Source: Terriglobia bacterium (GTDB lineage Bacteria; Acidobacteriota; Terriglobia; Bryobacterales; Bryobacteraceae). Taken from it: 64,000 bases of DNA. Below are positions 4,023-23,987 of the stretch, one piece after another. Position numbers and translations under genes: made by a program. The notes below the pieces were generated by a model. It saw nothing but the letters and a program-made list of their open reading frames with translations. It was not told the origin of the DNA and searched no databases. Numbering within the stretch: position 1 is the stretch's first letter; every line of letters begins with the position of its first letter. The DNA lies in the NCBI GenBank assembly GCA_020073145.1, contig JAIQFS010000020.1:29879-93878 (forward strand), written 5' to 3'.

Positions 4023-5657
4023 GTGCGGAACTTGTTGAAGGTTGTTCCGGCGCTGGTGACGCTGGCGCTCGGCTCGCTTCTGCTCACTCAAAAAGGCCAG
4101 GCGATTCCAGCCTTTTCACGCCAATATGCCACCTCTTGCATGACGTGCCATATTGACTTTCCGAAGCTCAACGATTTCGGCAAGGCATTCAAGGATGCGG
4201 GTTTTCAGTTTCCGAAAGACGATGACACATACATAAAGGTTGCGCCGGTGATGCTGGGCGCGGAAGCGCAGAAGCAGACCTTTCCCAAGTCGGTCTGGCC
4301 GGGAACCATTCCGGGCATGCCGCCCATCGGACTGCGGTTCAATTCGTTCTTCCAGGCCACGGGGGCCAACCGGAAGCGTTTCGATCCGTTGGCCGGCCCC
4401 GGGGGCATTCCGCAAGTTATCCCCGGCACGGACTTTGCCAGCGGTCTGTTCAGTATCTTTACGGCCGGCAATTTCGGGAGCAGCATCGCGTTCTGGGTGG
4501 ACGACGATATCAGCGTGGCCGGCAGTAACGGAGCAGGCGGTCTGGGCGATGCGTACCTGAAGTTCGTCAACGTGAGCCGGTTTCTCAAACTACCAAAAGA
4601 CTCGCTCAGCGTCCGCGCGGGGCAGTTCGAGCTGGACCTTCCGGTGACGCAGGCGCGGAGCTACAACCTGAGCCCCTACGACATCTACCAGCAGGCCAAC
4701 GTCGGTGCCATGAACTCCTTGGTGTCGCTGCAGCAGAACGTGTCGAACCAGTTCACGTTTGCGGATGCCGCGAAAGGAGTGGAGATCAGCGGCGGGCATC
4801 AGTATGGCGGATATCACTATTCGGTGGCAGTCTTCGATCAGAACACCGCCGGCATCGATCAATCGGCCAATACCAGCCCGTACGTGCCCTCGCCCACCGG
4901 CGGCGCCAATGGCGGCGTCGGCTTCGGATCGAGCACCAGTTTCAAGAACGTCTACGGACGCCTCTCCTACCGTTTCAATCTGGAGCGCGATTCGGAAAGC
5001 CGGCACGACATTCAGGCCGCCGGGGCGACCGGGCCGCGCGATCACACCTACTTGAACTTCGGGTCTTTCTATTTGTACGGAAAGTCGCTCCAGCAATTTG
5101 TCGGCGCCGCTGCCGAGAACCCGGTCCTGCGCGCCGAAGAGCCCTACTTCCGCGCGGGCGGCGACTTCAATTTCAACTACCGCCGATTCAACGTCTATGG
5201 CGTGTACCTGTACGGCCGCGACCAGAACCTGCTGCCGGTAGACGACAACGGAATGCTGATCCCGCTTCCGCTCACGTCGGCTTCGCCGCTGCCGGTCAGC
5301 TTCATCAAAAGCGTACCGGCGCGGTTCAGCGGCGGCTTCGTACAGGCCGACTACATGGTGCATCCCTGGGTCATGGCGATCATGCGCTGGGATGGCGTCA
5401 ATTCCACCGCCGACCGGATCAACGGCCTGGCGCTGGCCACCGATACTCCCTTCTTCGGGCCGCTCCACTCCACGCGCACGCGATTCACGCCAGGAGTCCA
5501 GTTCCTGATTCATCCCAACATCAAGTTCTCCTTCGAATATCAGATCCGCCCGATACAGACCGCCATCGTCGAGACCGATCCGGCCACCGGCAAGCTGGTT
5601 GCAGTCGATCCGTTCCGGGTCAACACCGCGCTATTTGGTCTCGAATTTGTTTACTAG
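4023..5657 (+). CDS. Monoheme cytochrome c/outer-membrane beta-barrel fusion (Cyc2-like architecture)
   Basis: The GTG at 4023 is chosen because AGGGGGG lies 6 bases upstream and a signal peptide (about 1-24) follows directly; an upstream in-frame reading from 3810 is not protein-like. The mature protein begins with IPAFSRQYATSCMTCHIDFP: a CxxCH heme site followed by FPKLNDFGKAFKDAGF. This is the arrangement seen in fused porin-cytochromes of the Cyc2 class. The remaining 480 or so residues are rich in alternating aromatic/polar strands and end in Tyr (LFGLEFVY), as expected of a barrel. Cyc2 oxidises extracellular Fe(II); related fusions exist whose donors are unknown, so substrate and direction are not established. 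It is the first gene of the plus-strand operon. Confidence 0.72.
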   Translation: MRNLLKVVPALVTLALGSLLLTQKGQAIPAFSRQYATSCMTCHIDFPKLNDFGKAFKDAGFQFPKDDDTYIKVAPVMLGAEAQKQTFPKSVWPGTIPGMPPIGLRFNSFFQATGANRKRFDPLAGPGGIPQVIPGTDFASGLFSIFTAGNFGSSIAFWVDDDISVAGSNGAGGLGDAYLKFVNVSRFLKLPKDSLSVRAGQFELDLPVTQARSYNLSPYDIYQQANVGAMNSLVSLQQNVSNQFTFADAAKGVEISGGHQYGGYHYSVAVFDQNTAGIDQSANTSPYVPSPTGGANGGVGFGSSTSFKNVYGRLSYRFNLERDSESRHDIQAAGATGPRDHTYLNFGSFYLYGKSLQQFVGAAAENPVLRAEEPYFRAGGDFNFNYRRFNVYGVYLYGRDQNLLPVDDNGMLIPLPLTSASPLPVSFIKSVPARFSGGFVQADYMVHPWVMAIMRWDGVNSTADRINGLALATDTPFFGPLHSTRTRFTPGVQFLIHPNIKFSFEYQIRPIQTAIVETDPATGKLVAVDPFRVNTALFGLEFVY

Positions 5658-5678
5658 ATCGTGAAAGGACGAACCAAA

Positions 5679-6269
5679 ATGTTCTCGATACTATCGAAAT
5701 CTCAAGCGGTCATCGCGCTTTTGGCGGTTGCCGCCGGTGCGGTTCACGCCGGTGAGATCACGGGAAAAGTCACCGCCGGGAAGGGCATCTCCGTGGTCTG
5801 GGTGGAGGCTGTGCCCGGGAAGACCTTTCCCAAGCCGGATAAGCCGATCACGATGGATCAGAAGTCCTTGCTGTTCCAGCCGCACATCATGGTCGCGCCG
5901 GTGGGCGTCACGGTGGAGTTCCTGAATAGCGACAACGTGCAACACAACATCTTTTGGCCGGCCATCAGCGGCAACAAGAAGCTGAGCCATAACATGGGTA
6001 CCTGGCCCAAAGGCCAAACCCGCTCCTTTCAGTTCGACACCGTGGGCGTAGTGCCGCTCTTGTGCAATGTACATCCGGAGATGTCGGGCTACATCATCGT
6101 CACGCCCACTCCTCTCTACGCGGAAACCGACGAATCGGGCGCCTTCAAGATCGCCGACGTGCCGGACGGCAGCTATACGGTGACGGCGTGGCACGAAGGC
6201 TACAAGAACCAGTCCAAGCCCGTGACCGTCAAGGGCACGGCGGCGGCCGATTTCGCGCTGACCAAGTAA
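5679..6269 (+). CDS. Periplasmic cupredoxin with C-terminal carboxypeptidase-regulatory-like domain
   Basis: The ATG at 5679 is preferred over the GTG at 5661 because AAGGA lies upstream and a signal peptide of about 24 residues follows. The first domain is a type-1 copper fold: an N-side His in NVQHNIFW, and the C-x3-H-x3-M ligand loop in LLCNVHPEMSGY. The C-terminal part (from about residue 148; DESGAFKIADVPDGSYTV) is a small beta-sandwich of the CarboxypepD_reg kind. It is probably a soluble one-electron carrier between the outer-membrane cytochrome encoded just upstream (21-base gap) and the cytochrome b complex encoded downstream, a rusticyanin- or plastocyanin-like job. The domain calls are firm; the role is inferred. 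Confidence 0.82.
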   Translation: MFSILSKSQAVIALLAVAAGAVHAGEITGKVTAGKGISVVWVEAVPGKTFPKPDKPITMDQKSLLFQPHIMVAPVGVTVEFLNSDNVQHNIFWPAISGNKKLSHNMGTWPKGQTRSFQFDTVGVVPLLCNVHPEMSGYIIVTPTPLYAETDESGAFKIADVPDGSYTVTAWHEGYKNQSKPVTVKGTAAADFALTK

Positions 6270-6298
6270 AGGCCCTGCCAGCCGCCACGGGAGACCCT

Positions 6299-8199
<1,901 letters not shown>

Positions 8200-8203
<4 letters not shown>

Positions 8204-8694
8204 GCGGAAACGTCAGCACAACACCGACCGCCCAAACCGATCCCGGCTCCAGCCGCCGGCAAGCGTTTATCCAGCTCGGGGTTGGCTCCATCTGCGTGGC
8301 CTGTGCCGGGGCTTCGGTGTTCGGCTACGAATTCCTGGCGCCGAACGTTCTTTACGAGCCTTCGCCCATCACCAACGCCGGCAAGCCCGACCGCTATCCG
8401 CAAGGCACCGTGACCCAAGACCTGCAGGCGGGCATCTACATCGTGCACGGTCCGGAGGGCCTCTACGCTCTGTCGGCGGTCTGCACGCACCTCGGCTGCC
8501 TCACCGCCTGGAAGCCCGAGTTGGGAATCGTGGCGTGCCCCTGCCACGGCAGTAAGTTCCGCCGCGACGGCACCAAGATCGAAGGCCCCGCGCCCAATCC
8601 CTTGCCCTGGCTGAAAGCATGGATCAGCGACGAAGGAGATCTCCTGGTGGACCGTTCCGCGCCCCTCGAGCAGAAGCAGTTTGTGAGGACCTGA
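8200..8694 (+). CDS. Rieske [2Fe-2S] protein of a cytochrome bc-type complex
   Basis: 164 residues. An N-terminal Tat-like anchor (Arg19-Arg20 before a hydrophobic stretch, 21-40) precedes the Rieske fold. Cluster ligands are visible as C95-T-H97-LG-C100 and C113-P-C115-H116-GS, including the two extra disulfide cysteines typical of high-potential quinol-oxidising Rieske proteins. The start ATG at 8200 overlaps the flavoprotein stop; the upstream in-frame codons from 8131 lie inside that gene. With the two following genes it forms the catalytic core of a quinone:cytochrome oxidoreductase. Confidence 0.93.
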
Positions 8695-8695
8695 C

Positions 8696-9442
8696 ATGGC
8701 GAACTCCCTGGAGGCCCGGCTCACAAGCCTGCGCGATACCCGCGTCTGGCGGTCGATCTTCCGCAGCGGATCGGGAGCCACCAATCTGCGCCGCGCGCTC
8801 GCCGTCCAGCAGAACGTGTTCCTGCACCTGGCTTCGGTCAAGGTCCGGAAACGGTCGCTGGCCTTCCGCGTTACCTGGTTCCTCGGCACCCTCACTCTGG
8901 GCGCCTTCCTGATCCTAGTGCTGACCGGCATCCCGCTGATGCTGTATTACCATCCGTCGGTGCCGCAGGCGTACGCCGACATGAACGACCTGCGGTTTGT
9001 CGTCTCGGCGGGCGTCTTCCTCCGCAATCTCCACCGCTGGTCGGCGCACGCCATGGTGCTGCTGGTGTTCGCGCACATGTTCAAGGTGTTCTATCGCGGC
9101 GCCTACCGGCCGCCGCGCGAATTCAATTGGGTGATCGGGGTCGTGCTGTTGCTGATCACCCTGTTCCTGAGCTACACCGGCTACCTTCTGCCGTGGGACC
9201 AGTTGGCGTTTTGGGCCATCACCGTGGGCTCCAACCTGATTTCCGCGGTCCCGGTGTTCGGCGCTCGAATCCGGTTCCTGCTTCTCGGCGGCCACACTGT
9301 CAACGCCAACGCCTTGCTGCGGTTTTACGTCCTGCACTGCGTGATTCTGCCGCTGGCAGCCGTCACCTTCGTGGCCATTCATTTCTGGCGCATCCGCAAA
9401 GATGGCGGGATCTACTCCGGGGAGAGTAAGCGCCATGAGTGA
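8696..9442 (+). CDS. Cytochrome b, N-terminal (b6-like) subunit
   Basis: 248 residues with four predicted membrane helices. Bis-histidine heme ligands are His113/His127 (14 apart) in [11 protein letters not shown]...FAHMFK, and His214/His229 (15 apart) in YVLHCVILP...IHFWR. The wider second spacing is the b6f/Firmicutes form rather than the mitochondrial bc1 form. [16 protein letters not shown] is the conserved quinol-site segment. A hydrophilic N-terminal extension of about 55 residues precedes helix A. It lies 1 base after the Rieske stop and overlaps the next gene by 8 bases, so the three are one unit. Confidence 0.93.
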
Positions 9443-10142
9443 ACACAAAGACTTCGCCGCCGCCATGGACTCCGATAGCCGCAAGACTCCGGTCCGGGTG
9501 GCCTTCGTCACGCGGCGCACGTCTCCTCACGTGAAGCGTCAGGATGACGATTACGTCATGACGTTTCCGGAAGCGTTGTTCCGCGGCGTGGTGGCGGTCG
9601 AGGTGCTGGCTTTGGTCCTGGTGGTGCTGGCGCTGTTCTGGAACGCCTCTTTGGAACAGCTCGCCGACCCGATGCAGACCCCCAATCCGGCCAAGGCGCC
9701 TTGGTACTTCCTCGGCCTGCAGGAGCTGCTGCACTACTTTCCCCCGGTCGTGGCCGGCGTGCTGATACCGACCTTGGTGGTGATGGCCTTGATCGTCATC
9801 CCCTACTTCCGCATTAATATCGAAGCCGAGGGGCTGTGGACGCGCAACCGCGCCGGACGCCTCCGCATCCTCGCCGTGGTCATCGCGGTGTTCGTGGTCT
9901 TCCTGATCGTCTTTGACGTGTTCGCGGTGCTGATTCCCTCGCTGCTGGTGGCGGGATTGATGTTTTACTCCGCCACCAACCCGGCGGCCCCGGGCCGCTT
10001 CCATCGCTGGCTGGCATCCAAACCGCTCTCGTTCTGGATTATGTCTTGGTTCCTGCTGGAGGCGGGCGTGCTGACGCTGATCGGCACGTTCTTCCGCGGC
10101 CCCGGGTGGTCGTTCGTGATGCCGTGGAGTGGCCAGATATGA
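9435..10142 (+). CDS. Cytochrome b, C-terminal (subunit IV-like) subunit
   Basis: 235 residues. The ATG at 9435 lies inside the end of the b6-like gene. After a hydrophilic N-terminus, a helix (about 50-68) leads into [20 protein letters not shown] (84-101), the equivalent of the PEWY quinol-oxidation loop, here with Ala-Pro in place of Pro-Glu. Three further helices (about 104-125, 145-175 and 200-225) are more than in a minimal subunit IV. It pairs with the preceding gene to complete cytochrome b. The missing Glu of PEWY is notable because that residue normally takes part in quinol deprotonation. Confidence 0.87.
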
Positions 10143-12205
10143 GCCTGGGCGGAAAGATCGCGGCCGCCCGCCGGCTCCTGTTCGGAGACAGCGCGCGCAC
10201 TTTCGGCACGCTGAGCGTGGTGCTCCTGGCATTGCTCGCCGTCGTTCCGGCCAAGGATTACTTCCGCGAGTGGCGGACCTACCAGAAGGGGTATCTGCGC
10301 CTGGTCTCCAAGCGGAGCGACGCCACCTCCCTGGCCCGGCGCTTTGAGCCCGGCGTGCAGCAGGTCTGGCTGCCGGAACTGGGAGTGGTCGACCGTTGCG
10401 CCACCTGCCACGTCGCGCTCAAGGAATCCAGCCTGGCCGATGTGAAGACCCAGCCGTTCCGGCCGCATCCGTCGATTCCGCACAACCTCAGCGACTTCGG
10501 TTGTGCGTTTTGCCACCGCGGGCAGGGCGCGGCGACGACCGTCGAAGAAGCGCACCGCAGCACTAAGTCCTGGGAAGAGCCGATCCTGCCGGCCCGCTAT
10601 TTGGAGTCTTCCTGCGGCCAGTGCCACCTCGACCGGCCGGCCGGGACGCCGTTGCTGAATCAGGGACGCGACACGCTGGCCCAATATGGCTGCGTGCGCT
10701 GCCACACCATCAAAACGCTGGGCGGCGTCACCCTGGCCGGTACGGACGATCCTCCTTCGCTCGCGCACATCGCCGAAAAGACCAGCCGGGAGTGGATCGC
10801 GGCCTGGCTTAAGAACCCGCAAGCTTATGCTGCTTCGGCCACCATGCCGAACTTCCAGTTGCCGGATGAAGACATCCGCGACATCTCCGCCTTTCTGATG
10901 GCGCAAAGCACGCCCTATCGCGCCGGGACCGCCGCGGAGACCGCACCCGCTGCTGCGGCGGCCGATGCTGCCGCCCAGCAGGAAGGCGCCAGTCTGTACG
11001 GCGAATCCTTCTGCGCTTCCTGCCATGCCACGCAGAACGCCGCCGGCACCCTGGTGGGCGGAACGCTCGGGCCGGAGCTGACGCGCGTCGGCTCCAAGGT
11101 GAAAACGGCGTGGCTGGCGGATTGGCTGCGCAATCCCAAGGTCTACGACCCCGAAACCAAAATGCCGCATTACCGGCTCGACTCGAAACAAATCGGGCTC
11201 CTGCTGGGGTTCCTCGGCGGCAAGACGGATTCCGATTTCCTCGGCAACCGCCATTTCGACGCGGCCCCCAAGGCCGAAATCGAGCACGGCCAGAAACTGG
11301 TCATCGAGCGCGGCTGCGCGGCGTGCCACGACATCAACGGCGTCAAGAAGCCGGACGATTTCGCGCCCGAGCTGACGCTGGTGGGGAGCCGGCCGTTGGC
11401 GAAAATCCTGTTCGCGCCCGGCGTGCCCGAAACCCTGCCGGACTACATCGCGGCGAAGATCCGCCAGCCGCGGTCCTTCGGAAATGCCTTAAAGATGCCG
11501 CAGTACACCCTGGCGCCCCAGCAGGTGGACGGCCTGGTGACCGCCCTGCTCGCACAGACCGAAGGGGCGCAGACCGTGCCCGCCCGGCTCCGCGTGGCGG
11601 CGCGCCGGCCTTCCGATTACCACGCCGCGGGCAAGGCCGGGCAGCTCATCGAAGACATGTCCTGTTTCAGTTGCCACACCATCAACGGCCGGGGCGGCGA
11701 CATGGCGCCGGAATTGACCTGGGAAGGAACCTCCGTCCAGCGTGCCTGGCTGGTCAACTTTTTGAAGAATCCCAATACGTTGCGCCCGGCTTTGATCCGC
11801 CGCATGCCCAAGTTCAACGTAACGGATGCCGAAGCCAGCACTTTGGCCGACTACATCATGACGGTCTACCAGACGCCGGCCTTCGATCGCGACGCGCTCG
11901 ACGGCGCGCACTTCACGGCCGCCGACGGCGAACGCGGCAAAGAACTGTTCTACGGCAAGTACGCCTGCCAGTCCTGCCACATCGTGGACCCAAATCAGGA
12001 CAAGGGATACATCGGCCCGACTCTGACCCAGGTGGGCGTGCGGCTCAATGCCGCCTGGATCTTCCACTGGCTGAAGAACGCGCAGAGCCTGCGGCCGGGC
12101 ACGCTCGAGCCGGTGTGGAACATGAGTGACGACGATGCGCGGGCGATCGCCGCGTTCCTGATGGCACAGAAGACCGCGCCGCGGGCGGAGGCCGCCCGGA
12201 AATGA
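10139..12205 (+). CDS. Membrane-anchored octaheme c-type cytochrome
   Basis: 688 residues with one N-terminal membrane anchor (about 20-40) and a periplasmic body holding eight CxxCH motifs: CATCH, CAFCH, CGQCH, CVRCH, CASCH, CAACH, CFSCH and CQSCH, near residues 87, 122, 159, 185, 292, 393, 508 and 611. The later five sit in class-I cytochrome c modules, several separated by segments such as AWLxxWLKNPxxx-MPxF. The start overlaps the cytochrome b stop (ATGA). In this position it would be the cytochrome c1-equivalent acceptor of the complex, greatly enlarged, able to spread electrons over several periplasmic carriers. Heme count is read directly; function is from context. Confidence 0.85.
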   Translation: MSLGGKIAAARRLLFGDSARTFGTLSVVLLALLAVVPAKDYFREWRTYQKGYLRLVSKRSDATSLARRFEPGVQQVWLPELGVVDRCATCHVALKESSLADVKTQPFRPHPSIPHNLSDFGCAFCHRGQGAATTVEEAHRSTKSWEEPILPARYLESSCGQCHLDRPAGTPLLNQGRDTLAQYGCVRCHTIKTLGGVTLAGTDDPPSLAHIAEKTSREWIAAWLKNPQAYAASATMPNFQLPDEDIRDISAFLMAQSTPYRAGTAAETAPAAAAADAAAQQEGASLYGESFCASCHATQNAAGTLVGGTLGPELTRVGSKVKTAWLADWLRNPKVYDPETKMPHYRLDSKQIGLLLGFLGGKTDSDFLGNRHFDAAPKAEIEHGQKLVIERGCAACHDINGVKKPDDFAPELTLVGSRPLAKILFAPGVPETLPDYIAAKIRQPRSFGNALKMPQYTLAPQQVDGLVTALLAQTEGAQTVPARLRVAARRPSDYHAAGKAGQLIEDMSCFSCHTINGRGGDMAPELTWEGTSVQRAWLVNFLKNPNTLRPALIRRMPKFNVTDAEASTLADYIMTVYQTPAFDRDALDGAHFTAADGERGKELFYGKYACQSCHIVDPNQDKGYIGPTLTQVGVRLNAAWIFHWLKNAQSLRPGTLEPVWNMSDDDARAIAAFLMAQKTAPRAEAARK

Positions 12206-12939
12206 ACCGGTCCGGACTGGCGGGAATGATTGCGGCGCTGGCCCTGGCAGTGACGGGCGCGTGCGGGCGGCATGCTGCGGCTCCAGCGGAGCTCCAGCCC
12301 AAGGCATACGGCGCCGCCATTGTGCTGGTAAGCGGCGAGAAACAGGTGGCAGGCGTGGGCGCGGCGCTCGATCAGCCCGTGGTGGTCCAGGTGAACGATG
12401 CGAAGGGCGCCCCTGTGCCCGGCGCGTTGGTGCGCCTGGCCGCAGCCGGCAGTGTCCGCTTCCTGCCGGATCGCGGCCTGACGGGGTCCGACGGCCAGTT
12501 TACGGCCGGCGTGAGCCTCGGCTCCTCGGCCGGCCGCTACCAGATTGTGGCTTCCACCGCCGGCGGCTCCGGCAAACGCGCCGAGGTCCGTGTGGAGGAG
12601 ATCGCCCTCGGATACCGAGAAACGCTCGGCCAGCAGATCAACGCGATTCACTGCATCCGCTGCCACGATTCCGAGTCCACGCCGGAGCGCGTCTCCAACC
12701 ATGACAACCTCAAAGCCCAGCCCCATTCCTTCACGGAAGGTGCGATCATGAATTCGATGAGCGATGCGGCCCTCGTCGCTATGATCGGCCATGGCGGCGC
12801 CGCGCTCAACAAGTCAGCCGAGATGCCGCCCTACGGAAACACCTTGACGCCGGCAGAGATCGACGCGCTGGTGGCCTTCATTCGCGCCGTCGCCGATCCG
12901 CCTTACCGTCCTCAGGGAGTCTTCGATGCGAGCAACTAA
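12202..12939 (+). CDS. Exported Ig-like/monoheme cytochrome c protein
   Basis: 245 residues. The N-terminal hydrophobic signal ends in TGAC, a poor lipobox, so lipoprotein status is uncertain. Residues about 40-140 form a beta-sandwich of the Ig/invasin-like type (VVVQVNDAKGAPVPGALVRL...TGSDGQFTAGVSL). The C-terminal part carries one CIRCH heme site near 151 and a class-I cytochrome c ending (MPPYGNTLTPAEIDALVAFI) that supplies the Met ligand. It overlaps the octaheme gene by 4 bases (ATGA) and the next gene by 14 bases. Probably a periplasmic or outer-membrane-attached electron carrier; the fold combination is unusual. Confidence 0.78.
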   Translation: MNRSGLAGMIAALALAVTGACGRHAAAPAELQPKAYGAAIVLVSGEKQVAGVGAALDQPVVVQVNDAKGAPVPGALVRLAAAGSVRFLPDRGLTGSDGQFTAGVSLGSSAGRYQIVASTAGGSGKRAEVRVEEIALGYRETLGQQINAIHCIRCHDSESTPERVSNHDNLKAQPHSFTEGAIMNSMSDAALVAMIGHGGAALNKSAEMPPYGNTLTPAEIDALVAFIRAVADPPYRPQGVFDASN

Positions 12940-14158
12940 CGCCGCCATCGCGGCGTGTCTGTTCGCTGCGGCGTCGTCAGCTCAGGTGCTGGCGCCCGAG
13001 GAAATCCGCGATCCTCAGCTGCGCGGCCTGCAGGAAAAATACCTCAGCGATCTTAAGCTCATCACCCGCGCCGTGGCCGCGCACGAGTTCCCCTACCATT
13101 TCTATTTCAGCCGGAAGCTCGATCTCGATGAGAAAGAGCAGAAGCGAAGCGACCAGCGCTCCGTCCAGTTCGACCGGTATGAAGGTCAGGTCGTGCTCAA
13201 GATCACCGGCAATTACTTCGCGTCCTATTCGGCGGAATTGATGAAGCCGGAGGAGCGCGCCCGCTTGACGTATCAGGCCGTGATGCTGCCGCTGCTGCGG
13301 GCCGCCGTCCCTGCGATGGAAAAAGCGGACGGGCCGCAGGCATTTGCATTCGAGATCTCGCATCACGTGCGCAAGAAGGTGCTGGGGGTATCCAACGAGG
13401 CCGTCGAAAACCTGGTGCTGATTCTGCCCAAGGCCTCGGCCCAGCGCCTAGTGGCGTCATCCGACCCCCAGGCACAACAAGCAGCCGTCTCCGAAGGCGA
13501 AGTGTTTCTGAATGCCGCTCCGATTTCGCTGTGGCCGCGGCCGGATGAGGAAGCCGCGGCGCGGCCAGCCGCCCCGGCCGGGGCGGCGCCGGCTCCCAGC
13601 TTCCCCACCCCGGCGGCCAAGGTCCGCGTTGAGACACCGGCTCCGCCGGCGGCCGCGCGAGACACCTCGCCGGAGGCCGTCAAAGGCCTGCAGAAGGCGT
13701 ATCAGACCAGCCTGGACCGGATGGTCCAGGAAATGGAACCGCAAGCGCACTTTGTCCGGTACGCCCCGCCTGCTTTCATCCCGTTCCATAACGGTTTGTA
13801 CCTGCAGTTGTCCCTGACCACCACGCTGCCGCCGGCCGCGGCGGGTTCTCAGTACCGGCTGGCCGCGCTGGCGTTCGACCAGCACATCGCCCATCTCATC
13901 CGTCCGGCGCTGGCCTATTTCAAAGACCGCGACGACTTTGACGGAATCGATTTCAGCGCCACCGTCCGGCTCGCCGCCGACAGCGCCGACGCCGGTGCAC
14001 TGGCCGTCGAGTTCTTCTTCCCACTCAAGCTTTTACGCGCGTATGCGGACTTCGATACCACGGGACAGCAGTTGATTGACCCTAGCTTCGTGCTCATCAA
14101 TGGCGAGCGGGTCAGTCTGAACCTGCAGGTAGCGGAAGCTGGAGCCCCAAGCAAGTAG
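12926..14158 (+). CDS. Exported protein of unknown function with internal duplication
   Basis: 410 residues with a signal peptide (cleavage near SSAQ, residue 20). I recognise no family. Two halves look like copies: one starts at RGLQEKY (33-39) and the other at KGLQKAY (about 253-259). Each continues with a long helix, a beta-rich stretch, and an ending of the form ...NAAPISL/NGERVSLNL. They are joined by a Pro/Ala-rich linker at about 206-250. There are no CxxCH or obvious metal motifs. Its place between a monoheme cytochrome and the CtaA-like protein, overlapping the former by 14 bases, ties it to the electron-transfer operon, perhaps as an assembly or scaffold factor. Confidence 0.72.
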   Translation: MRATNAAIAACLFAAASSAQVLAPEEIRDPQLRGLQEKYLSDLKLITRAVAAHEFPYHFYFSRKLDLDEKEQKRSDQRSVQFDRYEGQVVLKITGNYFASYSAELMKPEERARLTYQAVMLPLLRAAVPAMEKADGPQAFAFEISHHVRKKVLGVSNEAVENLVLILPKASAQRLVASSDPQAQQAAVSEGEVFLNAAPISLWPRPDEEAAARPAAPAGAAPAPSFPTPAAKVRVETPAPPAAARDTSPEAVKGLQKAYQTSLDRMVQEMEPQAHFVRYAPPAFIPFHNGLYLQLSLTTTLPPAAAGSQYRLAALAFDQHIAHLIRPALAYFKDRDDFDGIDFSATVRLAADSADAGALAVEFFFPLKLLRAYADFDTTGQQLIDPSFVLINGERVSLNLQVAEAGAPSK

Positions 14159-14160
14159 GC

Positions 14161-14961
14161 ATGAACAACCCTTGGCTGCATCGTGGCGCGGTGCTTCTGG
14201 CGTTGTGCACGCTGTTGCTGGTGGCGACAGGGGACGCGGTGACCAGCAATGACCAGCGGCCGATGTACTCGTTCGGGCAGATCCATTTCTGGACGGCGGC
14301 GGCGGCGGGCATCCTCACAATCGGTCTGGCGATTGGGCTGTCGCGGGCCGACCCTCGCGCGTGGCTGCGGCGATTGGGCTGGACCGCCGTCGGAGCCGTC
14401 GCGGTTCAAGCGGTCCTGGGGCTCCAGAGCGAGCCGCTGCCGCCCGCGGTGCGTTTCTGTCACGCCTTTCTGGCCCAGTTGTTCTTCACGGCTGTGGTGG
14501 CGATTGCCGTGTGCACCTCGAGCGGTTGGATGGAAGGTCCGGGGCTGCCCGAGAGCCGTTCCTTCCTGCGGTTCATGGCGAAGGTGACACCCGCCCTGGT
14601 GTTGCTGCAGGTGACGCTGGGGCTCGCGTTCCGGCACGGGTTGATGGGCGTGGGGCTGCACATCGCGGGCGCTTTCGCCGTGCTGTTCTTCATCCTGGGG
14701 CTGACGTTGCCCGTGATTTACGCTCCGGAGCCCGGCCGCCTGTCCGCCGCGGCCAAGACGTTGCTGGCCGTCGCATCCCTGCAGGTATTTCTGGGGCTTG
14801 CGTTGTTCATCATCCGATCGATGGATGAGATCGACCCAGTGGTGGTGATTGTGGCGACCATGGTTCACGCCGCAGTGGGAGCCCTGACGTTGGCGGCCAG
14901 CCTGGCGATGGCGCTCCTGGTCTTGCGTGGAGTCGGCGAACCCGCGGCGAGCCCGTTCTGA
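14161..14961 (+). CDS. CtaA/COX15-like heme-binding membrane protein
   Basis: 266 residues with about eight predicted membrane helices, arranged as two four-helix halves. Four membrane histidines are visible (QIHFW, FCHAFLAQ, GLHIAGAF, MVHAAVGA), matching the heme-ligand pattern of heme A synthase. The protein is shorter than typical CtaA and no oxidase genes are nearby, so it may be a heme-handling or quinol-linked paralog rather than a true heme A synthase. It lies 2 bases after the preceding gene, is the last gene of the plus-strand operon, and faces the convergent tetraheme gene across 49 bases. Confidence 0.72.
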   Translation: MNNPWLHRGAVLLALCTLLLVATGDAVTSNDQRPMYSFGQIHFWTAAAAGILTIGLAIGLSRADPRAWLRRLGWTAVGAVAVQAVLGLQSEPLPPAVRFCHAFLAQLFFTAVVAIAVCTSSGWMEGPGLPESRSFLRFMAKVTPALVLLQVTLGLAFRHGLMGVGLHIAGAFAVLFFILGLTLPVIYAPEPGRLSAAAKTLLAVASLQVFLGLALFIIRSMDEIDPVVVIVATMVHAAVGALTLAASLAMALLVLRGVGEPAASPF

Positions 14962-15010
14962 GCCGGCTACCGAAGCGCGACGGTTCGCAAGGTACTGCCT
15001 CTTGCCGCGT

Positions 15011-16126
15011 CTACCGTGCGCCGGGCTTATTCAGGTAAGCGATCAAATCAGACATCTGCGGCGCCGTGAAGCGCGGCCAGGCGATGTTGTTTTGCTTCAT
15101 CCGGTCCAGCATTGCCGGCCCGTGTTCCCACAGCACGGAGACCATGGTGATGTCCGAATAGGATCCGGCCCCCTTGCTCAAAGACGGAGCGCCGCTGGAT
15201 GGATCGTTATGGCAGGTGGCGCAGCCTTTCTCCGCGAACACGTCCTTGCCCTTGGCGGCATCCCCGCCTCCGCGGAAATACTGACGCGCCCAGACATACC
15301 CGAGAATCTGCCGCATCTCTTCCTGCGAGAGGTTCGGCGACGGTTGCTTCATGCTGGCCTGGTGGTTCCACATGGCCACGGCAATGCTGGTCAGGGTCAG
15401 GTTCCGTAGCCGCTCTTCGAGCGCCAGCTTGCCTTTATGACAATCCGCGCAACCCTTCGACTGGAACAGCGTGGCCCCGGATTCCGAAGGTGGAAACTCG
15501 AAGGCCGACACCAATGCCTTGTTCTGAGGCAGGTTTTGGAGATAGACCAGCATGTCGGTGAGTTCCTGGGCCGTCAACGGAGACCACCGCAGCTTGCGTT
15601 CGGTGTACGCCTGGCGCATCTTTGCGCCGTGGTTCCACATCTGCTGGGCCAGCACGATCGGGTCGGCCAGGGATTCCCACTTCACGACCGGAGGCGCTCC
15701 GGCGGCGTTGGACTGCGTGATCCCGTGGCATTCGAAGCAGTTCTTCGCCATCATGGCCCGCTTGCCGCGCGCCGCATCGCCCGCTTTTTCGAAATAACGC
15801 GCCGACACAAAATAGGCGAACAGGTCGGCCGCGGCTTCCGGCGAAAGCGCGGGCGGCGCCACCCCCTGGGTCCTCATCGCCTCCCACATTTCGGGTGCAT
15901 GGTTCCACATCAGGCTCACCATGATGGTGGGAGTGAAGTCCCGCCCGATGTGCGTGCCCAGATCCGGCGCGCGGTTGCCGCCCTTGCCATTGATGCTGTG
16001 GCACTGCACGCAGCGCTCGGTCAGAAAGAGCTGCTCCCCGCGCCGCGCGTCTCCGACAATTTCGCCGGCTCCCAGCGCGCTCCCGGCCAGGAGTGCGCCC
16101 GCCAGTATCACTCGAAGCTTGTTCAT
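15011..16126 (-). CDS. Tetraheme cytochrome c made of four repeated modules
   Basis: 371 residues. A signal peptide (about 1-20) precedes four class-I cytochrome c modules with CVQCH, CFECH, CADCH and CATCH. Each module also has a second motif about 45-60 residues later: MWNHAPEM, MWNHGAKM, MWNHQASM and LWEHGPAM. The invariant His and Met there look like distal ligand or interaction residues. The repetition indicates internal duplication twice over. AGGAGAAC lies upstream of the ATG. It is the last gene of the minus operon, 10 bases after the barrel gene, so it is probably a periplasmic carrier linking the outer-membrane conduit to the inner membrane. Confidence 0.85.
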   Translation of the reverse strand: MNKLRVILAGALLAGSALGAGEIVGDARRGEQLFLTERCVQCHSINGKGGNRAPDLGTHIGRDFTPTIMVSLMWNHAPEMWEAMRTQGVAPPALSPEAAADLFAYFVSARYFEKAGDAARGKRAMMAKNCFECHGITQSNAAGAPPVVKWESLADPIVLAQQMWNHGAKMRQAYTERKLRWSPLTAQELTDMLVYLQNLPQNKALVSAFEFPPSESGATLFQSKGCADCHKGKLALEERLRNLTLTSIAVAMWNHQASMKQPSPNLSQEEMRQILGYVWARQYFRGGGDAAKGKDVFAEKGCATCHNDPSSGAPSLSKGAGSYSDITMVSVLWEHGPAMLDRMKQNNIAWPRFTAPQMSDLIAYLNKPGAR

Positions 16127-16136
16127 GGCTGTTCTC

Positions 16137-18116
16137 CTACCGCGTGATCCGCAGCCCGGTCATGAAGACGTGGGTCCGGAACCCCTCGTAGAGATAGAAT
16201 CCCTCCCCCATTCCATACCACCGCCATTCGGTGTTCCAGGATACATTCTTTCTCACGGGAAGGGAAAGCCGCCCCAAGGGCTCGTAGAACCGCGTAGGCC
16301 GGCTTCCGTTTGAAATGAAGAGCGAACCGCCCACGGTCACTTGGGGCGTCATCCCGCCGTAACCGGGCAACATTAGATCGACGGCCGAGCTGGCCTCATG
16401 GGCATTTTCACGGTAGCCGGAAACCGCCGGGTTGAAAAACGGCAGCGACAGATATCCGATGTTGGAGCGAAGCGTGGACCGGTCATACTCACCGGTCACG
16501 GTGATCCGCTTGCCGCCGTTCGGAGTCCAGTAGACCGCCAGCGAGTTGTCCCGGCTCTGGAAATCGGACTGTACGCCCGCCGCCGGGTTCTGATTGTTCA
16601 GCAACAAGAAGTTGGCCTGGACCGAAAGCGATGCCGTAGCCTGATACCGCGCCCGCGCCCGCACCTTGTGATAGTCGTTCAAGCTGGTGCGAAAGTAAAC
16701 GCGATCGCTGCCCGCGGCCTCATAGTCGAGGTTCATCGACAGCTTCTCCGAAGGCCGGAACGTGAGGCCCGCCAGCCCTACGCTGCGCCGCAGGTCTCCG
16801 GAGGCGAAGCTGCCAATCTGGCTGAGCTGCCCGGCGCGCACGACCGCGTCGCCCCAGACGTAGCGGTAGCCCCCGCGCAGCGTGAGTTTTGCGGGGAGGT
16901 CCACGGTCACGTCCACCTGCTGCTGGTTGTAGTTCACCACCTGTTCGGTCAAAAGCGCGGTATCGACCGTCGTGGCCGCTGTCTTGACGTCCAACAGTTG
17001 CGAGAACAGGCCGAAGGCCGCGTCGTGATAGCGGTCGGTCATCCACGATTCGACGATGCGCACGCGGCGGAACGGCCGCATCTCAAACCCGGCGTTGCCG
17101 CTCACGTGCGGTTGTTTGGCCGTGCCGGTGGCCTGGCTGAGCTCGCCGCTGTAGAACAGCAGCGGGTTGGCTAGCGCCAGATTGCCGCCCGCCAGGTCCG
17201 TGTAAGTGACGTCAACCTTGGGCTGGCTGAAGAGAAATTGGCCGGAGAAGTCGATCCAGGACATCGGACTGGCGGTGAACAGCGCGCGTTCGTAGATGCC
17301 CTGGCCGCGAATCCCATAGGCCTGCTGCAGACTGTTGAGAACCAGACCCTGGCCGAGAAAGGGCGTCGTGCGGTCTCCCGGATTCGCCTGGTTGTTGTCA
17401 GCCTGATCGTCATTCTTGAACGTGGTGCCGCCCTGCTCCAGCGTGCCGTGGAAACGGTTGTACTCGAACCGCACACCACCGCGGTAGTTGTTCGTGCTGT
17501 CGCGCAGCAGAGACGCAACGGGGTACTCATTGGCCGCATCCGTCAGCCAGGTATCGATGCCGTGCCCGTAGCCGGAGTTGCGGTCGAACACCAGGTAGGG
17601 AACGATGCGCTTGCCCGGAAACAGGTCCAGGGAAACGGTGGTCATGCGGCGCCGCACATCGAACGCCTGTTCGTCGAAGCCTCCCGGGGCTCCCGGATTG
17701 GCGAACGAGGGCAGGGCGTTGAAGTACGCGAGGTTCCGGTAATCGAAGCTCAACCGGTACAGCCCGGATTTGCGGACATCCACGTGGGCCGTGTTGTAGG
17801 GATCGCCTCCCCATCCGGAGCCGCGTGCGTCCAGCCGGTCGAACAGGCGTTGCTTGGGGTCTAGAATCGTGAAGTCCAGGCCGAACAGCTTGGGCCCTTC
17901 GCCCAGATTGATGACGCTGCGGTAGGCCTGAAAATTCCCGTTCATGCCCGTGAGCCAGCGATACCCCAGGTCGACGCTGCCGGTCAGCCACTCGTCGGTG
18001 GAGGGCGCGGGATTGGCCGCCGGCTCCTGCGCCGGGCTCGGTGCGGCGGCTTCGGTTGGCGCTGGAGCTTGCGCCACAGCGGACGCGGCTACCAGGAATG
18101 AGAGAAGAAATCTCAT
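16137..18116 (-). CDS. MtrB/PioB-like outer-membrane beta-barrel
   Basis: 659 residues. A signal peptide and a Pro/Ala-rich segment (about 17-40) precede a large barrel domain full of alternating strands with tyrosine/arginine turns. The segment DEWLTGSVDLGYRWLTG...YRSVINLGEGPKL near 41-77 is typical of the decaheme-associated barrel family. In MtrCAB/PioAB systems the barrel sheathes the decaheme cytochrome across the outer membrane. There is no cysteine at all, so the CXXC found in Shewanella MtrB is absent. The C-terminus (GLRITR) is not the usual aromatic residue. The start overlaps the decaheme gene's stop by 4 bases, supporting a stoichiometric partnership. Confidence 0.86.
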   Translation of the reverse strand: MRFLLSFLVAASAVAQAPAPTEAAAPSPAQEPAANPAPSTDEWLTGSVDLGYRWLTGMNGNFQAYRSVINLGEGPKLFGLDFTILDPKQRLFDRLDARGSGWGGDPYNTAHVDVRKSGLYRLSFDYRNLAYFNALPSFANPGAPGGFDEQAFDVRRRMTTVSLDLFPGKRIVPYLVFDRNSGYGHGIDTWLTDAANEYPVASLLRDSTNNYRGGVRFEYNRFHGTLEQGGTTFKNDDQADNNQANPGDRTTPFLGQGLVLNSLQQAYGIRGQGIYERALFTASPMSWIDFSGQFLFSQPKVDVTYTDLAGGNLALANPLLFYSGELSQATGTAKQPHVSGNAGFEMRPFRRVRIVESWMTDRYHDAAFGLFSQLLDVKTAATTVDTALLTEQVVNYNQQQVDVTVDLPAKLTLRGGYRYVWGDAVVRAGQLSQIGSFASGDLRRSVGLAGLTFRPSEKLSMNLDYEAAGSDRVYFRTSLNDYHKVRARARYQATASLSVQANFLLLNNQNPAAGVQSDFQSRDNSLAVYWTPNGGKRITVTGEYDRSTLRSNIGYLSLPFFNPAVSGYRENAHEASSAVDLMLPGYGGMTPQVTVGGSLFISNGSRPTRFYEPLGRLSLPVRKNVSWNTEWRWYGMGEGFYLYEGFRTHVFMTGLRITR

Positions 18117-19129
18117 TTGAGCAACGCCCGATCCACATAGGATCCATGCACCTTCTGGTGACAGAGAGTGCAGTTCTGGAAGCGCGGACTGCGCAGATCA
18201 TGGAAGGCCGGAGGAATCGTGGCCAGCGTCCCGTCGGCCGGCGGCGTGGGCAGCGGCAGGTTGGCGTGGCACTCCAGACAAACGAAGCGCACTTCGTGCC
18301 GCGTCAGCATGTGCGGATTCGCCGAGCCGTGGGGAACGTGGCAGGCTGTGCAGCCTTCCAGGCGGACGGCCGCGTGTTCGAATGGAAACGGGCCGGCTTT
18401 GTCGCCATGGCAGTTGAAGCAGCCGGGCTCGTTGGCGCGGGACGTCTGCATGGACCGTGGCAGGAAGCTGCCGTGCGGATTGTGGCAGTCCACGCACGAC
18501 ATGCTGGCCGGCGCGAACGCGCCGCCTTTGGCCAGCGGGTGGCTATAAGGCCGCTGGAAGCTGGCCCAAACTGCGGTGTGGCACCCGGCACAGAGCTGGT
18601 TGACGGCGTCCGGCTTGCGCGCCACTAGCCCATTGGGCCCATTCTTGTGAATCGAGTGGCAGGTCACGCAGCTCACCTGGTTCTTGGCGTGGCTACCATT
18701 GATGCGCCCGATTTGCGTAGGCTGGTTGCGATGGCAGGTCAGACAAATGCGGTCGGCTTCCGCCGCCGGCAATTTGGCCGGCTGCCGGATATCGGCCGCC
18801 GACACCGACTCGGCGTGCTTGCCGGCCGGACCGTGACAGGCTTCGCAGGCGCGGTTCTCAAAGCCGCGCTTTTTGTCGGTCTCCACGGCGTGATGTGGAT
18901 TTTTCTGGAAGGCCTTATAGATATCCTCGTGGCACACCTGGCACATTTCGGAACCGATGTAGGCCGGCTGGCCGGCTGCGGGCGGAGCAGGCGCGGGCGG
19001 AGCGGGAGCGCCCGGTGTCGGCTGGGCGCTCCCGGAAGCGAGGCTGAAGAGGGATACCGCTGCGAGCACCGCGGGGAGCGGTGCTCTGCGGGTCAAACGA
19101 GTTGCGGACCGCCGGTGCGCAAAGACCAT
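18113..19129 (-). CDS. DmsE/MtrA-like periplasmic decaheme cytochrome c
   Basis: 338 residues. An N-terminal signal (about 1-37) and a Pro/Ala-rich spacer are followed by ten CxxCH motifs: CQVCH, CEACH, CLTCH, CVTCH, CAGCH, CVDCH, CFNCH, CTACH, CLECH and CTLCH. Heme number, spacing and size match the MtrA/DmsE/PioA family, whose members form a wire inside an outer-membrane barrel. It is flanked by the OmcA/MtrC-like gene (3-base gap) and the barrel gene (4-base overlap), the classic conduit set. It should accept electrons from, or give them to, periplasmic carriers. Confidence 0.92.
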   Translation of the reverse strand: MVFAHRRSATRLTRRAPLPAVLAAVSLFSLASGSAQPTPGAPAPPAPAPPAAGQPAYIGSEMCQVCHEDIYKAFQKNPHHAVETDKKRGFENRACEACHGPAGKHAESVSAADIRQPAKLPAAEADRICLTCHRNQPTQIGRINGSHAKNQVSCVTCHSIHKNGPNGLVARKPDAVNQLCAGCHTAVWASFQRPYSHPLAKGGAFAPASMSCVDCHNPHGSFLPRSMQTSRANEPGCFNCHGDKAGPFPFEHAAVRLEGCTACHVPHGSANPHMLTRHEVRFVCLECHANLPLPTPPADGTLATIPPAFHDLRSPRFQNCTLCHQKVHGSYVDRALLK

Positions 19130-19132
19130 CCC

Positions 19133-21340
19133 CTATTTTCCGGCGTGTTCTTTGTCGACGTCAAAATCCGCCCCGGTCGAATGGCAGATATCGCACGTCT
19201 CTCCGAATGTCGGACTGGTGTTCAACAAAGCGTGCCCCATGGCCGACCGCGTAAAGTGGCAGGCCGTGCAGGCTGAGGTCGTGGGCTGAACCGGGCTCAC
19301 CAGCCCTTGCGTGTCCAACACGGCGTTCTTGCCGATCGGGAAATTTGCTTCCGAGGTGTTGACGTGGCACATGTAGCATTTCGCCGTGTCGGCCACCGAG
19401 CCCGTGGGGCCCATGGCCGGGTAGCGGACGCCTGTGTTGGGAATGGAAGCCGGTACGGAAGCGAACGTCGCGCCAAAGTCATTGTGGCTGCCGCCGAAGC
19501 CGACGATGGTATAGGTCAGCCCGGCCGCTCCCAATTCCTCGCCCGTGTGAATCTTGTGCACCATGAGGGCGAAGTTCACCGACTGCGGAGGCAGGGCCTT
19601 GTCCGCCGCCACCACGGCGTTACCGCGCACCGAACTGTCGTTCTCGCTCGGATTATGGCACAGAACGCACATTTCGATCTGGTTCCGGTTCTCGCCATGG
19701 ACCGACAAACGTGAGTGGCATTGATTGCAGTTATTGATGCTCGCCACGGTGCGGCGCGGCACGACCGGACTGCCGTCCACCGAGAAGGGGAATACCACGT
19801 TATTAGCGCCATAGTTAACGCTCACCGGCGTTGTGGTGGTGGGATTGATGACAAAGGTGCGCCGACCTTCAATTCCGACCGCGTAGGTGCCCGTGGCGGT
19901 GGCCGGAATGGCATGCGTGAACGTGTACGAGCAGGTGCCATCCGGACTGCAGCTGGCCGTGGAAACCGGGTTTTCGGAGACGTAGCCCGGAGTGGTCGCG
20001 CCGAAGTTGGTGTAGCCGTAGTCCGAGGCCGGACCAGCCAGGACCAGCGCCAGGCGATTGGACCCGCCCGTCAACTGGGCCATGGAAACTCCGTTGCCTT
20101 TGGCATCCTTCACCGTAAAGGTGACGGTCGGTTTTTGCCCGGCGCTGCCGTTGACGACTTTGAGAATACTGAAGACCAGTCCCGGATTGGCCGCCGACTC
20201 TTGCGGGTAGACGTGCGCGCCCTTGATCGAAGTGTCAAACTCCAATTCGCCCTGAGGGAAGTGGCATTGGGCGCACTGATTGTCGGAGACTTGCGGCAGA
20301 TTGACGTGGTTCGCCCCGGTCGCGAAATTGACGTTGTCGTGGCAGGAGCCGCACGCCGCGCGGGTTGGATTCTGCAGCCAGGCGTTGGATTGCGTGGCAC
20401 CGGTGGTGGACTCGTGGCAGAACGCGCAGCGCCTCGGATCGGACGGCAGTTCCACGGTGGACCAGTCCGAGACCGCTTGGTTGAAGCCGATGATCTGATA
20501 AGGGGTCCCGGCCTGCACGCTCGGCAGTTCGCTGCCCATGTGAATCTTATGGATGAAGACCTTCATGTCCACCGTGTTACCGGTGTCGGGATCGGTGGTC
20601 TGCGGTGTATGGCACATGATGCACAGTTCCATGCTGCGGCGCGAACCGCCGTGGAACGCCAGTTGGTCGTGACACTTGTCGCAGGTCTGGGTGCGAATGA
20701 TGTCGCGCGGCGCAGCGGTGCCGCCGGCCGGCACGAAGTCATAGGTGGCATCGTCATAATTGGTGCCCAGGTCGAACTCTGTCAGGTTGCGCGAGCCATA
20801 GACCCCCACGCGGTGCGTGGCCGTTGGATCCCAAGCCCCGCCCCCTTGCGCCAAGGCCTTGGTCTTGAACGTATAGATGTACTCTCCGAGCGCCACCGCC
20901 TGCGTCGTCCCGCCCGAATCGGCCCCGGCCTGCACAGCCGTATTGTGCGTGATCGGACTGGTTTGCGATCGGGTGGCATACGAAACGTACTGCGCTTGCC
21001 CCTTCGGAATGTACGCCGCCAGGAAGCTCACGCTGATCGGACCGGGTGTGACAATTCCATCCTTGTCCAAGGCCAATCCCTTGGGATCCATCAGCTTGTA
21101 GTCCACGCTAATGGTACCGTCCGCGGCAATGTTGGCGGACACGATTTGAATGTTCAGCCCCGGGCGGATAAAGCTCAGGGTACTCGATGCCAGGTAATAC
21201 TCTTTGTCGTACACCGTATATCCGTTGTTCCCAAAGAATCGGCTCCGTTTGGCCGCGCTCATCAGGACTACGGACCCGGCAACCACAATCAGGGCCACGA
21301 GATAGCGGCGTGACCGAAGGACCGAAGTAAGAATCCGCAT
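19133..21340 (-). CDS. OmcA/MtrC-like extracellular decaheme cytochrome c
   Basis: The ATG at 21340 is chosen because GGAG sits 6 bases upstream; an in-frame ATG at 21346 lies directly on that site. 735 residues with ten CxxCH motifs in two pentaheme groups: CDKCH, CIMCH, CAFCH, CGSCH, CAQCH, then CNQCH, CVLCH, CYMCH, CTACH and CDICH. They are separated by a beta-sandwich domain near 370-500. The motifs CDKCHDQLAFHGGSR and FIHKIHMG (and the second-copy VHKIHTG) are typical of the family, which docks on the outer face of an MtrAB conduit and exchanges electrons with minerals or partner cells. The N-terminus is a hydrophobic signal without a lipobox cysteine, unlike Shewanella MtrC/OmcA. It is the first gene of the minus operon. 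Confidence 0.92.
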   Translation of the reverse strand: MRILTSVLRSRRYLVALIVVAGSVVLMSAAKRSRFFGNNGYTVYDKEYYLASSTLSFIRPGLNIQIVSANIAADGTISVDYKLMDPKGLALDKDGIVTPGPISVSFLAAYIPKGQAQYVSYATRSQTSPITHNTAVQAGADSGGTTQAVALGEYIYTFKTKALAQGGGAWDPTATHRVGVYGSRNLTEFDLGTNYDDATYDFVPAGGTAAPRDIIRTQTCDKCHDQLAFHGGSRRSMELCIMCHTPQTTDPDTGNTVDMKVFIHKIHMGSELPSVQAGTPYQIIGFNQAVSDWSTVELPSDPRRCAFCHESTTGATQSNAWLQNPTRAACGSCHDNVNFATGANHVNLPQVSDNQCAQCHFPQGELEFDTSIKGAHVYPQESAANPGLVFSILKVVNGSAGQKPTVTFTVKDAKGNGVSMAQLTGGSNRLALVLAGPASDYGYTNFGATTPGYVSENPVSTASCSPDGTCSYTFTHAIPATATGTYAVGIEGRRTFVINPTTTTPVSVNYGANNVVFPFSVDGSPVVPRRTVASINNCNQCHSRLSVHGENRNQIEMCVLCHNPSENDSSVRGNAVVAADKALPPQSVNFALMVHKIHTGEELGAAGLTYTIVGFGGSHNDFGATFASVPASIPNTGVRYPAMGPTGSVADTAKCYMCHVNTSEANFPIGKNAVLDTQGLVSPVQPTTSACTACHFTRSAMGHALLNTSPTFGETCDICHSTGADFDVDKEHAGK

Positions 21341-22142: not shown

Positions 22143-22143
22143 G

Positions 22144-23979: not shown

Positions 23980-23987
23980 CGTCCTCC

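What the first reader, a model, noticed from the sequence alone, without database searches (positions are those of the whole stretch)
4023..21340. Compact electron-transfer island joining a Cyc2-like fusion, a Rieske/cytochrome b complex and an MtrCAB-like conduit
Two convergent operons meet at 14961/15011. One encodes a monoheme-barrel fusion, cupredoxin, flavoprotein, Rieske protein, split cytochrome b and octaheme cytochrome. The other encodes OmcA/MtrC-like, MtrA/DmsE-like and MtrB/PioB-like proteins plus a tetraheme cytochrome. Together they carry 34 CxxCH motifs. Having a Cyc2-type and an Mtr-type outer-membrane route beside a dedicated quinone complex suggests one complete pathway from outside the cell to NAD(P)H or quinone. 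In an acidobacterium this arrangement looks unusual. Direction is undetermined.
Basis: partly seen in the sequence, partly recalled or inferred. Interest (0 to 1): 0.9.

Follow-up and report, generated by a model that had tools for sequence, protein, structure and literature searches.

The report
Cyc2-like barrel wired to NADPH complex
A soil acidobacterium carries an operon, found in the same order in scattered relatives across its phylum, that joins an outer-membrane cytochrome resembling known iron oxidases to a Rieske/cytochrome b complex with its own NAD(P)-type flavoprotein, so it likely moves electrons between iron outside the cell and NAD(P)H inside; genes for a second, Mtr-type conduit stand beside it in this genome but beside none of the copies examined in relatives.

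Summary
In detail: two convergent operons at 4023-14961 (+) and 15011-21340 (-) with 34 CxxCH motifs. They are not one evolutionary unit. The + operon (Cyc2-like monoheme barrel, cupredoxin, flavoprotein, Rieske, split cytochrome b, octaheme cytochrome and more) recurs in order in 55 of 80 named GTDB loci (22 more are too short to tell), in Geothrix and in other acidobacterial families; none has MtrCAB beside it. The - operon belongs to a resident Bryobacteraceae MtrCAB locus; a CRP-type regulator that adjoins it in 7 of 40 relatives is cut off from it here by the + operon. The inner-membrane part is closest to the NAD(P)-linked Rieske/b complexes of the anammox bacterium Kuenenia (Rieske best PDB hits 9rk4/9rk3). 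In a phylum sample of 22 octaheme-complex loci, all 20 whose contig covers the site have a Cyc2-type barrel; four use a different barrel subfamily. I read it as a dedicated route from a Cyc2-like barrel to quinone/NAD(P)H, likely Fe(II)-fed. Direction is unproven: the genome has no RuBisCO, and Geothrix, an iron reducer, carries it too. New variant of a known kind.

The parts
4023..5657 (+). Cyc2-like monoheme outer-membrane barrel (GTG start, signal peptide by eye, AIPAFSRQY-ATS-CMTCH-IDF-PKL)
5661..6269 (+). exported cupredoxin with C-terminal carboxypeptidase-regulatory-like domain; type 1 copper ligands H95, C135, H138, M141 invariant in 83 of 83 distinct homologues
6299..8203 (+). GltD/NfnA-type FAD and NAD(P)-binding protein with N-terminal and C-terminal Fe-S cysteines, no hydrophobic segment found
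8200..8694 (+). Rieske 2Fe-2S protein; best PDB matches are the two Kuenenia Rieske proteins
8696..9442 (+). b6-type cytochrome b half, heme ligands plus invariant H44 before the first helix
   Evidence: (ExtP model 256 bits, cut-off 290)
9435..10142 (+). subunit IV-like half; Qo motif reads KAPWYF, not PEWY
10139..12205 (+). octaheme cytochrome c with one N-terminal hydrophobic segment
   Evidence: 8 CxxCH
12202..12939 (+). Ig-domain plus monoheme cytochrome c, exported
12926..14158 (+). exported 410-aa protein of unknown function, downstream of the complex in Terriglobia and more distantly in other lineages
   Evidence: no Pfam or NCBIfam match over cut-off
14161..14961 (+). polytopic membrane protein, weakly CtaA/COX15-like; not a conserved operon member
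   Evidence: seen elsewhere on one contig only (L088, the same contig as L198), upstream of the barrel and on the other strand
15011..16126 (-). tetraheme cytochrome, the common last gene of the family's MtrCAB locus
16137..18116 (-). MtrB/PioB-like outer-membrane barrel
   Evidence: Pfam MtrB_PioB 18.0 bits, below cut-off 23; relatives, distant ones included, in 94 of 101 family genomes
18113..19129 (-). MtrA/DmsE-family decaheme cytochrome
   Evidence: TIGR03508 over cut-off; 6r2q_A
19133..21340 (-). OmcA/MtrC-family decaheme surface cytochrome
   Evidence: TIGR03507 over cut-off
3104..3781 (-). CRP-type regulator; adjoins the 3' end of MtrCAB in 7 of 40 relatives, here separated from it by the + operon

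Best explanation
The + strand operon encodes a Cyc2-like outer-membrane cytochrome together with a Rieske/cytochrome b complex that has its own NAD(P)-type flavoprotein, and it likely works as one electron route that takes electrons from dissolved Fe(II) or another outside donor to quinone and NAD(P)H. Shown: the gene set and order recur across Acidobacteriota; the cofactor-binding residues are intact; the complex keeps a Cyc2-type barrel partner even where the barrel is of another subfamily. Inferred: the barrel heme takes electrons from outside; cupredoxin and the monoheme cytochrome carry them to the membrane-anchored octaheme cytochrome; that cytochrome shares them between terminal oxidases (downhill) and the Rieske/b complex (uphill), which feeds quinone and, on the cytoplasmic side, NAD(P)+ through the Fe-S/FAD protein. 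The neighbouring MtrCAB operon is a separate resident of this locus, probably a conventional metal or electrode conduit; the Cyc2-like operon interrupts its neighbourhood in this genome, and no functional link between the two is shown.
Against: Direction is not shown. No RuBisCO in the genome, so it is not a Calvin-cycle lithoautotroph. Geothrix, known to me as an anaerobic iron reducer (recalled), carries the operon; I expected it to lack oxygen reductases, but all four genomes of that genus tested have COX1-family genes, so this does not decide the matter. The window barrel departs from the Cyc2 consensus at one residue (Ser for Ala); 23 of 87 distinct homologues fit it exactly. Nine named loci have a short form (barrel, mostly with cupredoxin, and the 410-aa protein) without the Rieske/b complex, as has L041, and L147 has only barrel and cupredoxin, so the barrel can occur without the complex. 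One locus with the complex shows no detectable flavoprotein (L192). Of six loci with the second barrel type, two lie outside such an operon. The full octaheme complex is in only 21 of 247 phylum genomes. The heme-binding segment of the barrel model has pLDDT under 50, so heme placement is unresolved. No PEWY glutamate at the Qo site (0 of 65 distinct).
Confidence: 0.6

Rival explanations
1. The same operon runs outward: the Rieske/b complex oxidises quinol (or NADPH through the flavoprotein) and the octaheme cytochrome, cupredoxin and barrel pass electrons to an outside acceptor such as Fe(III) or Mn(IV); quinol oxidation may be bifurcated, with the low-potential electron making NAD(P)H.
For: Geothrix has the operon. 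The best NCBIfam matches of the b halves and octaheme are Geobacter ExtP, ExtQ and, for part of the octaheme, ExtS, all below cut-off; that cluster is linked to selenite/tellurite reduction and reported as more abundant with Fe(III) (PMC5877670, passages). Bifurcating NAD(P)H formation is the published proposal for the Kuenenia complexes (PMC12954380, passages). No RuBisCO.
Against: Only one heme at the outer membrane and no surface multiheme cytochrome in the operon; Cyc2 proteins tested in print are Fe(II) oxidases. The cupredoxin suits a high-potential chain (inference).
Confidence: 0.33
2. One integrated island: Cyc2-like and Mtr conduits beside each other act together as a single pathway.
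For: They are adjacent and convergent here, with matching base composition. Both kinds of gene occur in many of the same genomes: 27 of 30 operon-bearing genomes tested (30 chosen from the 80 named loci) also have an MtrA-family match, 11 of 30 at 50% identity or more.
Against: Not adjacent in any other locus examined; in eight family genomes where both genes have a listed place, they lie on different contigs (draft contigs, so weak evidence alone). MtrB-like genes are in 94 of 101 sampled family genomes while the barrel is in 21 of 237, so co-occurrence is expected without a link. CRP next to Mtr elsewhere points to an interrupted locus.
Confidence: 0.07
3. The barrel is a porin for a metal or oxyanion with a structural heme, and the redox operon serves detoxification (as proposed for Geobacter ExtI) rather than energy or NAD(P)H metabolism.
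For: OprP/OprO-like fold; Porin_O_P match of the Geothrix homologue just under cut-off (20.3 against 20.9); ExtP/ExtQ/ExtS-like subunits.
Against: Exactly one CxxCH in 86 of 87 distinct homologues; replacement by another Cyc2-type barrel in four operons.
Confidence: 0.1

Closest known systems
Cyc2 fused cytochrome-porin (Mariprofundus PV-1, Acidithiobacillus ferrooxidans)
   Same: single CxxCH at the N terminus, AxPxF(A/S)R[QK][TY] before it and PxL after it, 16-strand OprP/OprO-like barrel
   Different: one motif residue differs in the window protein; sits in one operon with a Rieske/b complex and NAD(P)-type flavoprotein; in a genome without RuBisCO
Kuenenia NAD(P)-linked Rieske/cytochrome b complexes (Kuste4569-4574, Kustd1480-1485)
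   Same: b6-type cytochrome b, subunit IV-like protein, Rieske (best PDB hits), octaheme cytochrome, NAD(P) oxidoreductase-type protein with Fe-S cysteines
   Different: no b6f-type cysteine for heme cN seen in cytochrome b (its only Cys is C215, beside heme ligand H214); no HAO-like octaheme noticed in the operon; joined to an outer-membrane Cyc2-like barrel and cupredoxin
Geobacter extHIJKLMNOPQS cluster
   Same: outer-membrane barrel gene clustered with Rieske (ExtO), cytochrome b (ExtP), ExtQ and c-type cytochromes
   Different: ExtI is described as a porin without a cytochrome domain and is paired with a rhodanese; the published gene list has no flavoprotein or cupredoxin; cytochrome b is below the ExtP cut-off here
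Shewanella-type MtrCAB
   Same: OmcA/MtrC, MtrA and MtrB-like genes together, in the - operon
   Different: followed by a tetraheme class I-like cytochrome; MtrB-like barrel below the Pfam cut-off; not part of the + operon

Membership tests
Cyc2 | AXPXFAR[Q/K][T/Y] upstream of CXXCH | tested here: not met
   window AIPAFSRQY, one substitution; exact in 23 of 87 distinct homologues, 73 of 87 with Ser and Trp allowed; exact in the Geothrix barrels and in two of the four replacement barrels. So called Cyc2-like, not filed as Cyc2
Cyc2 | single CXXCH and PXL four residues after it | tested here: met
   CMTCHIDFPKL; PXL in 85 of 87 and one CXXCH in 86 of 87 distinct homologues
Cyc2 | 16-strand OprP/OprO-like porin, over 365 aa | tested here: met
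Cyc2 | oxidises Fe(II) | not testable with these tools
   needs biochemistry
Kuenenia-type NAD(P)-linked Rieske/b complex | Rieske, b6-like cytochrome b, SUIV-like, octaheme (or hexaheme) cytochrome and NAD(P) oxidoreductase in one cluster | tested here: met
Kuenenia-type NAD(P)-linked Rieske/b complex | heme cN on cytochrome b (needs a b6f-type cysteine) | tested here: not met
   only Cys in the window protein is C215, beside H214; not aligned to the Kuenenia protein
Kuenenia-type NAD(P)-linked Rieske/b complex | His of cytochrome b for a bridging heme b on the cytoplasmic side | tested here: inconclusive
   H44 invariant in 67 of 67 distinct; equivalence to the Kuenenia His not aligned
canonical bc1/b6f complex | PEWY/PDWY Qo motif (recalled) | tested here: not met
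   0 of 65 distinct; KAPWYF in 63 of 65
Geobacter ExtP | NCBIfam NF040969 score of at least 290 | tested here: not met
   256 bits
MtrCAB | MtrA/DmsE decaheme | tested here: met
   TIGR03508 252 against 192; 6r2q_A
MtrCAB | OmcA/MtrC decaheme | tested here: met
   TIGR03507 562 against 209
MtrCAB | MtrB barrel | tested here: inconclusive
   PF11854 18.0 against 23; no PDB sequence hit; position fits

The most novel reading that the evidence does not exclude
Acidobacteriota evolved a single-operon Fe(II)-to-NAD(P)H pathway: a Cyc2-type outer-membrane iron oxidase feeds a Rieske/b complex whose built-in flavoprotein makes NAD(P)H directly, bypassing complex I, in heterotrophs without RuBisCO; soil and bog bacteria would thus use iron as a source of reducing power, not of carbon fixation.
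Probability: 0.3. Interest if true: 0.85.

Novelty: new variant of a known kind. Interest (0 to 1): 0.62.

Why it matters
Cyc2 is used as a marker of iron oxidation, and the uphill branch to NAD(P)H is usually assigned to separate bc1 and complex I genes (recalled). Here a Cyc2-type barrel is tied in one operon to a NAD(P)-linked Rieske/b complex of the kind described in anammox bacteria. It occurs in Acidobacteriota from bog and palsa metagenomes (record titles) and in Geothrix, some of whose species are cultured (recalled). That makes two open questions directly testable by knock-out or heterologous expression: what these Rieske/b complexes do, and whether acidobacteria exchange electrons with iron. 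It also corrects the picture of a joint Cyc2/Mtr island.

Tried and rejected
Rejected: that Geothrix carriers lack oxygen reductases (all four genomes tested have COX1-family genes). Rejected: recent foreign origin of the + operon by composition; GC and GC3 are in the range of the flanks. The first barrel model (15 sequences) had pLDDT 57 and was not used; the deeper one was. PDB sequence search of the barrel and of MtrB gave no real hit. CtaA-like identity stays weak. I fetched no characterised Cyc2 sequence, so the Cyc2 comparison rests on the published motif and fold, not on a tree. Literature: the listings (open-licence PubMed Central papers only; other searches) showed no paper whose title or abstract start describes this operon; only passages of PMC10654088, PMC8406198, PMC12954380, PMC5877670, PMC6148476 and PMC7399161 were read. 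Rows set aside: tblastn hits covering under 30-35% of a query were dropped (20%); genome matches aligned over fewer than 600 of 688 residues were not counted as full-length octaheme (90 of 247 genomes match at any length). In the downstream test, named loci reach only about 10 kb past the barrel, so MtrCAB further on could be missed there; the longer stretches reach up to about 8 kb past the operon. G133 was scored by coordinates only; its operon was not read. Partial hits of the tetraheme protein to single class I cytochrome domains near barrels (L037, L089, and inside octaheme genes) were not counted as Mtr genes.
Full report
Observation. The window lies in one contig of a 6.3 Mb genome in 88 contigs, 100% complete by the tool's estimate. 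Names of the closest barrel relatives place it in Bryobacteraceae/Bryobacterales of Acidobacteriota (inference; the genome itself is unnamed). The genes, coordinates and the 34 CxxCH are as stated.

Two modules. Family-wide, barrel orthologues are patchy (21 of 237 genomes at E 1e-60), while MtrB-like barrels match in 94 of 101 sampled family genomes, distant paralogues included. None had OmcA, MtrA or MtrB next to the barrel operon; the only MtrA-like hit near a barrel is 32% identical and on the other side (L125). In 40 family MtrCAB loci the order OmcA-MtrA-MtrB-tetraheme is common, and a CRP-type regulator follows on the same strand in 7 of 40 (L079, L167, L168, L170, L176, L179, L180; 1.5 kb away in L167, without a tetraheme gene between in L176, L179 and L180). 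Two of these are 78-82% identical to the window's CRP, the others 61-64%. HK and RR orthologues follow in one (L069), and HK2-RR2-MarR-ClC-DUF488 precede in L077. Several of the 40 are cut off by contig ends. In the window, CRP and tetraheme keep this relative orientation but stand 11.2 kb apart with the whole + operon between them. The simplest reading is that the + operon was inserted into a resident Mtr locus. Base composition does not mark it as foreign. A same-genus genome (G467, the contig of L085) has an 86% barrel in a short form elsewhere, and three other same-genus genomes have no match at that threshold.

The + operon. The order barrel, cupredoxin, flavoprotein, Rieske, cytochrome b N half, C half, octaheme is kept in 55 of 80 named loci, mostly followed by the Ig-monoheme and the 410-aa unknown; 22 of 80 are too short to tell, two clearly are the short form, and L147 has barrel and cupredoxin only. 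Counting the shorter contigs as well, nine named loci (L085, L086, L097, L112, L114, L123, L128, L135, L153) show the short form. Genes outside the operon are shared with at most two other loci of the 20 compared, chiefly among the Geothrix loci, so the operon behaves as a self-contained cassette.

Pairing test. In 247 genomes drawn evenly from the phylum there are 22 full-length octaheme loci in 21 genomes. Sixteen have a window- or Geothrix-type barrel close by on the same contig. Of the other six, four (L185, L186, L189, L190) hold a barrel of another subfamily in the same operon, and two contigs end at the site. The N terminus of that second type fits the published Cyc2 consensus exactly in L186 and L189 and with Tyr for Phe in L185 and L190; the Geothrix barrels and those of L191-L196 fit it exactly. 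The two barrel groups are homologous by profile (97.9%, 414 columns). Conversely, four of six loci with the second barrel type lie in such an operon. Replacement of one Cyc2-type barrel by another while the complex stays is good evidence that the complex needs a Cyc2-type partner. One locus (L192) shows no flavoprotein, and its octaheme frame holds a stop.

The complex. The Rieske protein matches best the two Rieske proteins of Kuenenia's unusual complexes (E 7.7e-23 and 3.1e-21, next 1.1e-17). That paper describes b6-like cytochrome b, a subunit IV-like protein with five helices, a hexa- or octaheme cytochrome and a putative NAD(P) oxidoreductase with Fe-S clusters, and supports NAD(P)H formation as the likely role (passages only). 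Parts of each of these kinds are here; the helix count of the subunit IV-like protein was not settled. Conserved among distinct homologues: Rieske motifs with Ser in 68 of 68; cytochrome b ligands H113 and H127 (67 of 67), H214 (66 of 67) and H229 (65 of 67), plus H44 (67 of 67); six N-terminal and eleven C-terminal cysteines of the flavoprotein each in at least 67 of 69; cupredoxin H95, C135, H138 and M141 in 83 of 83. Differences: KAPWYF instead of PEWY, and no b6f-type cysteine for heme cN.

The barrel. The model (mean pLDDT 75.7) has 16 long strands; its best structural matches are OprP and OprO, though the other porins listed score within 2 Z units. The heme segment is not modelled with confidence. 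The window motif differs from the Cyc2 consensus by Ser for Ala; 23 of 87 distinct homologues fit exactly.

Direction. For inward flow: Cyc2 precedent, cupredoxin, and five heme-copper oxidase genes. Against: no RuBisCO, Geothrix, Ext-type relatives. I commit to inward flow as most likely, at about even odds, and hold the conserved coupling itself as well supported (about 0.85). The confidence of 0.6 given is for the combined statement. The recount and motif corrections did not require a change of odds.

Noticed in passing
L041, L042, L086, L135, L085: Short form of the operon: barrel, mostly cupredoxin, and the 410-aa unknown without the Rieske/b complex; in L041 (G268) the barrel copy holds three stops while a full operon with an open barrel frame stands elsewhere in that genome (L040).
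   Followed up: partly
L044:12506-13318, L045:18401-19036, L100:18975-21557: A second cupredoxin upstream of the barrel in two genomes, and a second cupredoxin-Rieske-cytochrome b set directly after the operon in L100.
   Followed up: no
window 12926-14158: Exported protein without a Pfam match over cut-off that stays with the barrel even when the Rieske/b genes are absent.
   Followed up: partly
window 21615-26500: DUF488, ClC channel, MarR and a HK/RR pair beside OmcA: all five recur beside MtrCAB in L077, the HK/RR pair also in L065, L071, L072 and L078.
   Followed up: partly
G000:C46:25629-27152: A second, distant MtrB-like barrel in the same genome (24% identity); similar second copies in many family genomes.
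   Followed up: no
L156, L161, L162 upstream of barrel: A CRP-type regulator (30-31% to the window's) begins about 1 kb upstream of the barrel in three other acidobacterial loci.
   Followed up: no
L192: Octaheme/Rieske/b operon of G005 without a detectable flavoprotein and with one stop inside the octaheme reading frame.
   Followed up: no
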